Below, in pieces: positions 25,781 to 43,440 of a DNA stretch of 64,000 nucleotides. The first letter of the stretch is position 1. Each line of letters opens with the position of its first letter. The notes below the pieces were generated by a model that made no database searches, was not told the DNA's origin, and saw only the letters and a list, made by a program, of their open reading frames with translations. The position numbers were made by a program, and so were the translations under genes. Where the stretch lies: positions 1,789,244 to 1,853,243 of the forward strand of contig NC_015681.1 of the NCBI RefSeq assembly GCF_000217795.1. Direction: 5' to 3'. Origin of the DNA: Thermodesulfatator indicus DSM 15286. Its GTDB lineage: Bacteria > Desulfobacterota > Thermodesulfobacteria > Thermodesulfobacteriales > Thermodesulfatatoraceae.

Positions 25781-26068
25781 CTACAATTCATCATACAAAT
25801 CCCTCCACTCGGGATTGAATATATTTATCAATTCTATCTTTTTCTTTCTAGAGCCAGATTTGATTTTCTTTTCTCTTAAAATAGCATTTTCTGGATCTTC
25901 AAAGATCTCGTAATAAACCAGCTTAGTAACTTTATATTTTTTCGTAAATTTACTGCCTATTCCATTTTTATGCTGAAATATACGACGTTTAAGGTCACTA
26001 GTAATTCCCGTATAAAGAACTGTATTGTTTTTATTGGTCAAAATATAAACATAATATTGCTTTTGCAT
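25781..26068 (-). CDS. GIY-YIG domain nuclease-like protein
   Basis: 95 residues, a single GIY-YIG domain of the UPF0213/YhbQ-like type. YYVYILTNKNNTVLYTGITSDLKRRI carries the Y-V-Y and Y-T-G motif pair, the catalytic Arg is in the following helix (DLKRRIFQH), and the Glu is in DPENAILREKKIKS. Such small proteins are widespread and often sit among repeats; DNA nicking is known for the fold but a cellular role is not established. It lies between a repeat cluster and an IS110 copy that itself interrupts a repeat. Confidence 0.85.
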   Translation of the reverse strand: MQKQYYVYILTNKNNTVLYTGITSDLKRRIFQHKNGIGSKFTKKYKVTKLVYYEIFEDPENAILREKKIKSGSRKKKIELINIFNPEWRDLYDEL

Positions 26069-26089: not shown

Positions 26090-26182
26090 TCCCTTCGCTC
26101 CGCTCGGGACAAGGACTGCTTCGCTCCGCTCGCAGTGACAGATGAGGGTGTCATAGCGAGCCCGTCTCTTTTTTTGTCATTG
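26090..26182. repeat. REP-like repeat interrupted by IS110 copy 1 (left part)
   Basis: Modules CCCTTCGCTCCGCTCGGGAC, CTTCGCTCCGCTCGCAGTGAC and TGTCATAGCGAGCC end in TTTTGTCATTG (26172-26182). The repeat resumes as CGAGCCACGAAG at 27419. Removing the element restores GTCATTGCGAGCC. Confidence 0.85.
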
Positions 26183-26223
26183 TATGGTTTTAAGTAAAGG
26201 GCAAAAGCATTAAAGTAAAAAAA

Positions 26224-26391
26224 GTTGGTAGGGAGGGACAGGCTGTTGAGTCATGGAACGTTTGCTTTTTAGCAAACTGTTCGATCGCAAGATTAGCCGT
26301 CCTTCCCTGTGTTTGAACAGTATCCGGGACGTTTCCAATTACGGAAACTGTCCGTATACAAGGCTAAACCTGGAAGGACCTCCCTACCAAC
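26224..26391 (+). ncRNA. Predicted bridge RNA of IS110 copy 1
   Basis: A 168-nt non-coding segment closed by a perfect 13-bp stem (GTTGGTAGGGAGG, 26224-26236; CCTCCCTACCAAC, 26379-26391). Loop 1 has stem GTTTGCT/AGCAAAC with flanking GTCAT (26250-26254) and TCGCAA (26285-26290), matching the target GTCAT-TG-CGA on opposite strands. Loop 2 has stem GGACGTTTCC/GGAAACTGTCC with flanking ACAGTATC (26317-26324) and ATACAA (26356-26361), matching the joined element ends ACAGTATC-TTGTAT. That is the target-loop plus donor-loop layout of IS110 bridge RNAs. Transcription is not shown. Confidence 0.75.
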
Positions 26392-26431
26392 AATCTTTAT
26401 TTTATCTCAAAGAAAGGAGAATTGAAGACCT

Positions 26432-27400
26432 ATGAAAAATTTATCTTTTCTTGGGGTGGATGTGGCCAAGGATACATTGGTTATTTTTGATGGCCAGAAG
26501 GTTTACGAGTTTCAAAATGAAAGGGGTTTAAAGAAATTTAAGAGGAAGTTTTTTAAGAAGAAAGAAGACAGGAAGAAAAGGGTGGTGATATACGAGCCCA
26601 CAGGGCCATATTCGGCATTTCTGGAGGAGTTCTGTGCTACGAATATGATAAAAGTAGTATCCCTTAACCCCAGAAAAGTCCCCCGTTTAAGAGAAGTATT
26701 AGGTCACAGAGCAAAAACAGATAATCTTGATGCGAAACTGTTATACGAATATCACAAGATAGTTAGCGAAGAAGAGATCAAAGAAATAGAATATAACGAA
26801 AATTTAGAGAAATTAGCTTTATTGTTAAGTGAGTATCAATTATATCAAAACATAGAAAACAAGTTATCTAATTTTCTAGAGTATTTAGATAGAGTACCAG
26901 TAGATAGTAAAGAAAGCAAAAAACACATACAGAAAAACTTAGAAGAAACAAGGCAGAGGCTTCAGAAGATAAAGAAAGAGATGGAGGAATTAGTAAATAA
27001 AGATGACGACATAAACAAAGGGGTTAAAGAAATAGAGAAAGTTAAAGGTATAGGGAAGATGATAGCGACATATTGTTACATCTTTTTTCGGAAGAGGCGG
27101 ATAAGAAACCGGCGGGAGGTAGTAGCTCTAGCAGGATTGGACCCGGAAGTAAAGGAATCTGGTAAGAGGAAGCTGGTAACCAGGATAAGCAAGAAAGGGG
27201 ATAATAGGTTAAGGAGTTTGCTTTTTATGGGGGCGCTTAGTGCCATAAGATGTAAAGAAGGGGGACTAAAAGAGTATTACGAAAGTTTGATAAAGAGAGG
27301 AAAACCGAAGAAAGTGGCCATAATAGCCTGTGCCAGAAAATTATTGATATTTGCTTTCTATAATTACAAAAAATGGCAAATGGAAGCTCAAAGTGCTTGA
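26432..27400 (+). CDS. IS110-family transposase (DEDD recombinase), copy 1
   Basis: 322 residues. The N-terminal RuvC-like DEDD domain opens LGVDVAKDTLVIFDG and continues VVIYEPTGPYS and the family hallmark HRAKTDNLDAKLLYEY. The central part is a coiled coil (residues about 130-195). The C-terminal Transposase_20 domain has VKGIGKMIATYCYIFF, ALAGLDPEVKESGKRK and NRLRSLLFMGALSA with the catalytic Ser region. The start follows AAAGGAGA at a proper distance. Such enzymes recombine circular intermediates into a target chosen by the bridge RNA, without long duplications. It differs from copy 2 at only five residues and looks intact. Confidence 0.95.
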   Translation: MKNLSFLGVDVAKDTLVIFDGQKVYEFQNERGLKKFKRKFFKKKEDRKKRVVIYEPTGPYSAFLEEFCATNMIKVVSLNPRKVPRLREVLGHRAKTDNLDAKLLYEYHKIVSEEEIKEIEYNENLEKLALLLSEYQLYQNIENKLSNFLEYLDRVPVDSKESKKHIQKNLEETRQRLQKIKKEMEELVNKDDDINKGVKEIEKVKGIGKMIATYCYIFFRKRRIRNRREVVALAGLDPEVKESGKRKLVTRISKKGDNRLRSLLFMGALSAIRCKEGGLKEYYESLIKRGKPKKVAIIACARKLLIFAFYNYKKWQMEAQSA

Positions 27401-27418
27401 CAAAAACACAGTATCTTG

Positions 27419-27590
27419 CGAGCCACGAAGTAGCGAAGCAATCCTTGTCGCGAGGCGACACAGTCGCCGTGGCGATCTCTATCTCAGAGACTGCTTCGCT
27501 CCGCTCGCAGTGACAGATGAGGGTGTCATAGCGAGCCACGCCCTTTATTTTGTCATTGCGATGGGCGAAGCCCCGAAGCAATCTCATACA
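27419..27590. repeat. REP-like repeat continuing after IS110 copy 1
   Basis: CGAGCCACGAAGTAGCGAAGC, the sub-module TTGTCGCGAGGCGACACAG, then GACTGCTTCGCTCCGCTCG, CAGTGACAGATGAGGGTGTC and GTCATTGCGATGGGCGAAG. The stretch CTGCTTCGC...GTGTCATAGCGAGCC is also present just left of the element. Confidence 0.85.
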
Positions 27591-41937: not shown

Positions 41938-42057
41938 GTCACTGCGAGCGGAGCGAAGCAGTCCCTGTCCCGAGCGGAGCGAAGGAATCTTTGAGATCGC
42001 CACGGCGACTACGTCGCCTCGCGACAGGGATTACTTCGCTCGCCTGCGGCTCGCTCG
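41938..42057. repeat. REP-like repeat interrupted by IS110 copy 2 (left part)
   Basis: GTCACTGCGAGCGGAGCG, CCGAGCGGAGCGAAGG, the module GATCGCCACGGCGACTACG and GATTACTTCGCTCGCC, ending CTCGCTCG (42057). On the far side of the element CAATGACAAATAAA continues it, so removing the element gives CTCGCAATGAC. Confidence 0.85.
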
Positions 42058-42076
42058 CAAGATACTGTGGTTTTTG

Positions 42077-43045
42077 TCAAGCACTTTGAACTTCCATTTG
42101 CCATTTTTTGTAATTATAGAAAGCAAATATCAATAATTTTCTGGCACAGGCTATTATGGCCACTTTCTTCGGTTTTCCTCTCTTTATCAAACTTTCGTAA
42201 TACTCTTTTAGTCCCCCTTCTTTACATCTTATGGCACTAAGCGCCCCCATAAAAAGCAAACTCCTTAACCTATTATCCCCTTTCTTGCTTATCCTGGTTA
42301 CCAGCTTCCTCTTACCAGATTCCTTTACTTCCGGGTCCAATCCTGCTAGAGCTACTACCTCCCGCCGGTTTCTTATCCGCCTCTTCCGAAAAAAGATGTA
42401 ACAATATGTCGCTATCATCTTCCCTATACCTTTAACTTTCTCTATTTCTTTAACCCCTTTGTTTATGTCGTCATCTTTATTTACTAATTCCTCCATCTCT
42501 TTCTTTATCTTCTGAAGCCTCTGCCTTGTTTCTTCTAAGTTTTTCTGTATGTGTTTTTTGCTTTCTTTACTATCTACTGGTACTCTATCTAAATAGTCTA
42601 GAAAATTAGATAACTTGTTTTCTATGTTTTGATATAATTGATACTCACTTAACAATAAAGATAATTTCTCTAAATTTTCGTTATATTCTATCTCCTTGAT
42701 TTCGTCTTCGCTAACTATCTTGTGATATTCGTATAACAGTTTCGCATCAAGATTATCTGTTTTTGCTCTGTGACCTAATACTTCTCTTAAACGGGGGACT
42801 TTTCTGGGGTTAAGGGATACTACTTTTATCATATTCGTAGCACAGAACTCCTCCAGAAATACCGAATATGGCCCTGTGGGCTCGTATATCACCACCCTTT
42901 TCTTCCTGTCTTCTTTCTTCTTAAAAAACTTCCTCTTAAATTTCTTTAAACCCCTTTCATTTTGAAACTCGTAAACCTTCTGGCCATCAAAAATAACCAA
43001 TGTATCCTTGGCCACATCCACCCCAAGAAAAGATAAATTTTTCAT
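42077..43045 (-). CDS. IS110-family transposase (DEDD recombinase), copy 2
   Basis: 322 residues, differing from copy 1 at five positions (for example YSVFLEEF for YSAFLEEF, SEDEIKE for SEEEIKE). The same DEDD motifs are present: GVDVAKD, YEPTGPYS, HRAKTDNLDAKL, and the C-terminal Transposase_20 domain. The start follows AAAGGAGAATTG. It appears intact, so both copies may be active; either could supply recombinase for the other. Confidence 0.95.
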   Translation of the reverse strand: MKNLSFLGVDVAKDTLVIFDGQKVYEFQNERGLKKFKRKFFKKKEDRKKRVVIYEPTGPYSVFLEEFCATNMIKVVSLNPRKVPRLREVLGHRAKTDNLDAKLLYEYHKIVSEDEIKEIEYNENLEKLSLLLSEYQLYQNIENKLSNFLDYLDRVPVDSKESKKHIQKNLEETRQRLQKIKKEMEELVNKDDDINKGVKEIEKVKGIGKMIATYCYIFFRKRRIRNRREVVALAGLDPEVKESGKRKLVTRISKKGDNRLRSLLFMGALSAIRCKEGGLKEYYESLIKRGKPKKVAIIACARKLLIFAFYNYKKWQMEVQSA

Positions 43046-43085
43046 AGGTCTTCAATTCTCCTTTCTTTGAGATAAAATAAAGATT

Positions 43086-43253
43086 GTTGGTAGGGAGGTC
43101 CTTCCAGGTTTAGCCTTGTATACGGACAGTTTCCGTAATTGGAAACGTCCCGGATACTGTTCAAACACAGGGAAGGACGGCTAATCTTGCGATCGAACAG
43201 TTTGCTAAAAAGCAAACGTTCCATGACTCAACAGCCTGTCCCTCCCTACCAAC
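43086..43253 (-). ncRNA. Predicted bridge RNA of IS110 copy 2
   Basis: Identical in layout to the copy 1 segment: 13-bp closing stem (CCTCCCTACCAAC at 43241-43253, GTTGGTAGGGAGG at 43086-43098 on the plus strand) and the same target guides (GTCAT, TCGCAA) and donor guides (ACAGTATC, ATACAA) read on the minus strand. Conservation in both copies is expected because they are recent duplicates, so it is not independent support. Confidence 0.75.
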
Positions 43254-43297
43254 TTTTTTTACTTTAATGCTTTTGCCCTTTACTTAAAACCATACAA

Positions 43298-43440
43298 TGA
43301 CAAATAAAAAAACCGGTTCGCAATGACACCCCCTCTGTCACTGCGAGGAGGCCCGTAGGGCCGACGAAGCAGTCCTTGGGATTGCTTCGGCCTTTAGCGA
43401 GGCCTCGCAATGACAGGGTTAAATTAAGACCTCGCAAGAA
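43298..43440. repeat. REP-like repeat cluster next to IS110 copy 2
   Basis: ATGACAAATAAAAAAACCGG, TTCGCAATGACACC, GTCACTGCGAGGAGG, hairpin GGCCCGTAGGGCC and CCTCGCAATGACAGG. It fills the gap between the element and the tRNA nucleotidyltransferase gene. Confidence 0.85.

What the first reader, a model, noticed from the sequence alone, without database searches (positions are those of the whole stretch)
26224..26391. IS110 bridge-RNA-like segment whose target guides match the host's own dispersed repeat
The 168-nt segment upstream of the transposase folds into two stem-loops inside a 13-bp closing stem. In loop 1, GTCAT equals the top strand left of the insertion core and TCGCAA is the complement of TTGCGA right of it. 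In loop 2, ACAGTATC equals the element's right end and ATACAA is the complement of TTGTAT at the left end. Thus both target (GTCAT-TG-CGAG, the core of the REP-like repeat) and donor (joined ends) are encoded with the opposite-strand guide logic of IS110 bridge RNAs. The target is a repeat present in dozens of copies, which would give the element a large supply of safe intergenic sites.
Basis: partly seen in the sequence, partly recalled or inferred. Interest (0 to 1): 0.92.

Follow-up and report, generated by a model that had tools for sequence, protein, structure and literature searches.

The report
RNA-guided jumping gene targeting host repeats
This is a jumping gene of the known IS110/IS621 kind: a small RNA it encodes carries short matches to its own ends and to a DNA repeat scattered through its host, and closely related copies in sister bacteria carry different guide letters that match their different landing sites.

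Summary
Window 26181-27416 is a 1236-bp IS110-group insertion sequence. Its transposase aligns to IS621 with all five catalytic residues present. A 168-nt RNA (26224-26391) folds far better than shuffles (z = -7.8) into a target loop and a donor loop, in the IS621 guide register. The genome holds 9 copies, all in intergenic GTCAT^TGCGAG sites; 120 exact sites remain free.

Own copies alone barely test guidance, because almost every available repeat has the same core. Sister species can. G004's guide reads CGCGA: 5 of 6 right flanks are CGCGAG, although that form is 24 of 162 repeats (P about 4e-4). In G005 I predicted the guide from its right flanks (CTACA). The predicted string occurs three times in that genome, each time in a target-binding loop at a left end of the element. 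In G002 guide and flank are both C-rich. Helices keep pairing through double changes.

One correction: the core is not TG. Exchange lies after GTCAT; the core is CT in the donor, AT in the target.

IS110 bridge RNAs, REP targeting and natural re-guiding are published, so this is a new member of a known kind. It differs in a 13-bp stem closing the whole RNA in place of the 5' stem-loop.

The parts
26181..27416 (+). IS110-group insertion sequence, 1236 bp; one of 9 copies in the genome, 98.96-100% identical
   Evidence: boundaries fixed by identical junctions GTCAT^TGTATGG and ACAGTATCT^TGCGAG in all copies (one copy has TGTGTGG)
26172..26180 (+). left half of the target (positions 1-9, TTTTGTCAT; core A8-T9 = 26179-26180)
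   Evidence: compared with left target guide TTGAGTCAT, matches at positions 5-9 (GTCAT) and partly at 1-4
27417..27422 (+). right half of the target (TGCGAG, positions 10-15)
   Evidence: pairs with right target guide UCGCA
26224..26391 (+). bridge RNA: 13-bp closing stem (26224-26236/26379-26391), target-binding arm (26241-26298), donor-binding arm (26300-26378)
   Evidence: compensatory changes across sister species
26246..26254 (+). left target guide UUGAGUCAU (ends with A8 U9 of the core)
26285..26291 (+). right target guide UCGCAAG (complement of CT-TGCGA); the next two bases AU (26292-26293) match the handshake positions of the donor
   Evidence: register from PMC11208158
26317..26324 (+). 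left donor guide ACAGUAUC, equal to the right end of the element
26356..26362 (+). right donor guide AUACAAG, complement of CTTGTAT at the joined ends
26432..27400 (+). IS110 transposase (322 aa), DEDD residues D10, E55, D97, D100 and serine S253
27397..27402 (+). -35 box TTGACA in the right end; forms a promoter only in the circle
26183..26188 (+). -10-like box TATGGT in the left end; spacer of 16 in the joined circle
42053..43301 (-). second copy of the element in the window, opposite orientation; range is the aligned query, which includes a few bases of target
   Evidence: 99.3% identity

Best explanation
The segment is the bridge RNA of a recently active IS110-group (IS621-like) insertion sequence. 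The transposase excises the element as a circle, and joining right end to left end builds a TTGACA-N16-TATGGT promoter that transcribes the RNA (inferred). The donor loop pairs with the joined ends ACAGTAT-CT-TGTAT. [quoted passage not shown] Strand exchange 3' of the core T inserts the element there (guide-flank matching and exchange point shown from sequence; catalysis inferred from IS621). Because the target is a repeat with over 100 intergenic copies, the element can multiply with little harm. In sister species, relatives of the same element carry altered target loops that match other forms of the repeat or other repeats.
For: Transposase: NF033542 'IS110 family RNA-guided transposase' above cut-off; PF01548 + PF02371; IS621 8wt6 E 4e-15 with D-E-D-D and S aligned. 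RNA fold z -7.8. 18 of 37 examined pairs show double changes among five lineages, with 4 non-pairs in 172 cells. 9/9 copies at GTCAT^TGCGAG. G004: all five bridge RNAs read CGCGA and 5/6 right flanks are CGCGAG, against 24/162 in the genome, binomial 3.8e-4. G005: the guide predicted from right flank CTACA was found three times, every time in a target-binding loop at a left end of the element. G002: right guide CCCCC, flank CCCCCC; left guide TCCTACCCT, flank TCCTCCCCT. Swap test: the true pairing ranks 1 of 24. Donor identical to that of IS621 in L067. Junction promoter in four lineages.
Against: No RNA or activity data. Own copies barely test guidance, since 120 of 127 repeats of this kind in the genome carry the same core. 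Enrichment at target positions 3-4 is weak (5 of 9 GA, P 0.053, sites not independent). The right target guide encodes C at position 8 where the target has A. Exceptions: one G004 right flank CCTGAG; the G003 left guide matches its flank 6/9, no better than other guides; two of three G005 left flanks match 5/8; the left donor guide of the decayed G002 copies does not match the element's right end.
Confidence: 0.95

Rival explanations
1. IS110 element whose transposase itself recognises the repeat (hairpin shape or sequence); the matching letters in the RNA are coincidental or relics of the ends.
For: Palindromic targets are recognised by protein in some insertion sequences (own knowledge); every own copy has the same target.
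Against: Guide letters change with the flanks in four lineages while the rest of the RNA is far more constant; the guide predicted for G005 was found; IS621 is shown to work by RNA (PMC11208160).
Confidence: 0.03
2. The structured segment is a regulatory RNA or mRNA leader controlling the transposase (as in ISPpu9), not a guide.
For: It lies directly upstream of the gene; ISPpu9, also in REPs, has regulatory small RNAs (PMC8450116).
Against: A leader need not match both target halves and both donor halves on opposite strands, nor co-vary with the flanks.
Confidence: 0.02
3. Copies spread by homologous recombination or segmental duplication within the repeat family rather than by guided insertion.
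For: Two sites (L002, L006) share long flanks, so one may derive from a duplicated segment.
Against: The remaining sites have different flanks on both sides with base-exact junctions; sister species show the same exact junction logic at other targets.
Confidence: 0.03

Closest known systems
IS621 (IS110 group) and its bridge RNA (PMC11208160, PMC11208158)
   Same: DEDD+S transposase; RNA in the long left end; donor ACAGTAT-CT-TGTAT identical; left guide matches top strand and right guide its complement; exchange after core T9; promoter at the joined ends; targets a REP-type repeat
   Different: Distant protein (phmmer 59 bits); target core AT instead of CT while the right guide still encodes CT; contiguous right donor guide (IS621 has flipped-out bases); no separate 5' stem-loop, instead a 13-bp stem enclosing both arms; target GTCATTGCGAG
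REP-targeting IS110-family elements ISPpu9, ISPpu10, ISPa11 (PMC1525189; ISPpu9 also PMC8450116)
   Same: Specific insertion in dispersed palindromic intergenic repeats
   Different: Other repeats and hosts; compared from papers only, sequences not compared here
IS110/IS1111 seekRNA, including natural re-guiding ISEc11 versus ISXne4 (PMC11187229)
   Same: Related elements with altered loops matching altered targets
   Different: Here several re-guided relatives occur within one genus, some aimed at alternative forms of the same host repeat

Membership tests
IS110 family, IS110 group | DEDD_Tnp_IS110 (PF01548) plus Transposase_20 (PF02371) | tested here: met
   both above cut-off; NF033542 above cut-off
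IS110 family, IS110 group | Catalytic D, E, D, D and serine of IS621 | tested here: met
   D10, E55, D97, D100, S253 align
IS110 family, IS110 group | Long non-coding left end upstream of the gene, short right end | tested here: met
   251 bp before the gene, 16 bp after its stop
IS110 bridge RNA | Two internal loops; 5' side equals top strand, 3' side complements it, for target and donor | tested here: met
IS110 bridge RNA | Guides co-vary with insertion flanks among relatives | tested here: met
   with exceptions listed
IS110 bridge RNA | 5' stem-loop before the two arms (IS621 consensus, not required of the whole family) | tested here: not met
   closing stem instead; IS110 RNAs are described as structurally diverse, PMC11208160
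IS110 bridge RNA | Core CT paired by all four guides (IS621; first base reported as less conserved among relatives) | tested here: not met
   target core is AT; left target guide encodes AT, right target guide encodes CT, donor is CT; PMC11208158
IS110 bridge RNA | Promoter reconstituted at the joined ends | tested here: met
   TTGACA-16/17-TATGnT in four lineages; activity not tested
IS110 bridge RNA | RNA binds the transposase and is needed for recombination | not testable with these tools
   needs experiment
IS1111 group | RNA downstream of the gene | tested here: not met
   the element ends 16 bp after the stop codon

The most novel reading that the evidence does not exclude
Within one genus, one IS110 lineage has repeatedly rewritten its target loop to follow the sequence forms of its hosts' own intergenic repeats. 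It does so with a bridge RNA whose two arms are held in one closed stem and with target and donor cores that differ at the first base, so that the right target guide pairs fully only after strand exchange.
Probability: 0.45. Interest if true: 0.5.

Novelty: new member of a known kind. Interest (0 to 1): 0.36.

Why it matters
It gives a compact natural series in one bacterial genus: related RNA scaffolds with different target loops, each matched by its own landing sites, and an out-of-sample prediction that worked. That makes the evolution of guide reprogramming, and co-adaptation between an insertion sequence and host repeats, testable. It also offers an IS110 system with a natural CT/AT core pair. 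The underlying mechanism is already published.

Tried and rejected
Rfam at gathering and permissive thresholds: no family for this RNA. Protein scan of genome contigs found nothing. Covariance-model scan of 395 phylum genomes found no copy outside the genus, but few candidates were scored per genome. DNA pattern for the donor loop in genome contigs gave only IS621-type elements in Klebsiella and Escherichia, a Ruminococcus match without an evident element, and the G003 copy. The idea that target positions 1-4 are strongly selected looked good in the window alone (0 of 27 GA) but faded genome-wide (about 26%). The repeat sequence was not found named in papers.

Full report
What is there. The window lies in a 2.32-Mb single-contig genome. 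A same-genus relative in the set (G003) has a contig of the same length and content as a record titled 'Thermodesulfobacteriales bacterium', so the host belongs to that order. The element is 26181-27416, 1236 bp. It holds one gene, 26432-27400, 322 aa. The protein matches PF01548 and PF02371 and NF033542, IS110 family RNA-guided transposase, above its cut-off. In the PDB it matches ISCro4 and IS621 transposases. Its D10, E55, D97, D100 and S253 align with the catalytic residues D11, E60, D102, D105 and S241 named for IS621 (PMC11208158).

The RNA. Segment 26224-26391 folds at -76.2 kcal/mol, z = -7.8. A 13-bp stem encloses two arms. Among the own, G004, G003, G002 and G005 versions, 18 of 37 examined pairs have changed on both sides while still pairing, and only 4 of 172 cells fail to pair; this includes 4 double changes in the closing stem (helices aligned by hand). 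The variable columns between own, G004 and G003 are concentrated in the two target guides, while the donor guides are constant.

Register. L067, an IS621-type element found by pattern, has the left junction ATCAGGCCT^TGTATTATCC and the same kind of donor loop. Our element has the identical donor ACAGTAT-CT-TGTAT. Applying the IS621 register (PMC11208158), the left target guide is UUGAGUCAU, the right target guide UCGCAAG, the left donor guide ACAGUAUC and the right donor guide AUACAAG. The two bases after the right target guide (AU) are complementary to donor positions 6-7 (AT), as the 'handshake' rule predicts. After the right donor guide, one of two bases fits the target.

Core. In the own copies TTG is shared by both junctions, so the exchange point is ambiguous. 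In G004 the right flanks are CGCGAG and the left junction is GTCAT^TGTATGG, which leaves only the single T in common. Hence the exchange is after GTCAT, and the core is AT in the target, CT in the donor. The left target guide encodes AT and the right one CT. All left junctions keep the target's base and all right junctions the donor's. IS621 cuts the top strand after position 9 and the bottom strand further left (PMC11208158); these junctions agree with the top strand being kept.

Test of guidance in the own genome. All nine copies sit at GTCAT^TGCGAG. The genome keeps 120 exact free copies of GTCATTGCGAG. But 120 of 127 GTCATYSYGAG forms are of this type, so this agreement is weak evidence. 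Two sites match all nine letters of the left guide (L002, L006), but they share flanks. Enrichment at positions 3-4 is not convincing (P 0.053).

Test in sister species. G004: five left ends, all with right guide CGCGA. Of six right ends, five flanks are CGCGAG and one CCTGAG. GTCATCGCGAG is 24 of 162 GTCATYSYGAG forms there; five or more of six by chance has P 3.8e-4. G002, decayed copies: right guide CCCCC, right flanks CCCCCC and CCCTGC; left guide TCCTACCCT, flank TCCTCCCCT. G005: two right ends are followed by CTACA. From this I predicted the right guide to read TGTAG in the context TCGNTGTAGAGA. The pattern occurs three times in that genome, about one being expected by chance, and all three lie in a recognisable target-binding loop at a left end of the element. 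One of the three left flanks matches the left guide TGAGCCCC over 8 letters; the other two match 5 of 8. The left flank of L135 and the right flank of L098 together make one palindrome, so the G005 target is again a palindromic repeat. G003: right guide CCTGA, right flank not in the assembly; its left guide fits its flank only 6 of 9. Swapping guides among four lineages, the true pairing ranks first of 24, with a close second because own and G004 are similar. In fragmented assemblies (G004, G005, G002) a given left end and right end usually cannot be assigned to one copy.

Expression. The joined ends form TTGACA-16/17-TATGGT, TATGTT or TATGAT in four lineages, as in IS621, where excision reconstitutes a promoter (PMC11208160). 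No plus-strand consensus promoter was found in the integrated copy's left end.

Safe sites. Rebuilding the nine empty sites shows no convincing gene crossing them; the few frames that do cross look like translations of the repeat itself.

Verdict. IS621 was already known to enter REP sequences, other IS110 elements likewise (PMC1525189), guide-target co-variation was shown across thousands of elements (PMC11208160) and natural re-guiding has been reported (PMC11187229). This is therefore a new member of a known kind. The unusual points are the closed stem in place of a 5' stem-loop, the mixed AT/CT core and the clear within-genus series of re-guided relatives.

Noticed in passing
window 26181-27416 and 42053-43301: Two nearly identical copies lie about 15 kb apart in opposite orientation; recombination between them could invert the segment between, which includes glycosyltransferase-like genes.
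   Followed up: no
L003 (G000:C1 near 82100), just left of the element: A short extra left-end fragment (GAGTCATTGTATGGTTTTAATTTAACCC) directly precedes the full left end, as if an earlier copy left a remnant in the neighbouring target.
   Followed up: partly
L009/L010 (G000:C1:816133-817307): One of the nine copies has its transposase split by a frame change; the other eight are open.
   Followed up: partly
L140, L144 and other places in G000: About a dozen copies of a ~299-aa Y1-type (RAYT-like) transposase score near the Pfam cut-off; none found in G003, which has few repeats. Possible mobiliser of the GTCATTGCGAG repeat, but the two fetched copies are not flanked by it.
   Followed up: partly
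L139 (G004:C7:81924-82256): A 221-aa Y1_Tnp frame lies next to several GTCATTCTGAG/GTCATCCTGAG repeats.
   Followed up: partly
L082/L101 and L102 (G008, another genus): Right-end fragments, 94-97% identical to G004's element, are joined to unrelated sequence with flanks TGCGAG and TCTGGG; relics without a left end.
   Followed up: partly
L098, L135 (G005): Another dispersed palindrome, GCTACGCCACTCTACAC..GTGTAGAGTGGCGTAGC, is the target of the G005 relative and overlaps the GTCATCGC repeat family.
   Followed up: partly
window 25781-26068, minus strand: Small GIY-YIG domain protein (PF01541) directly upstream of the element; not part of it.
   Followed up: no
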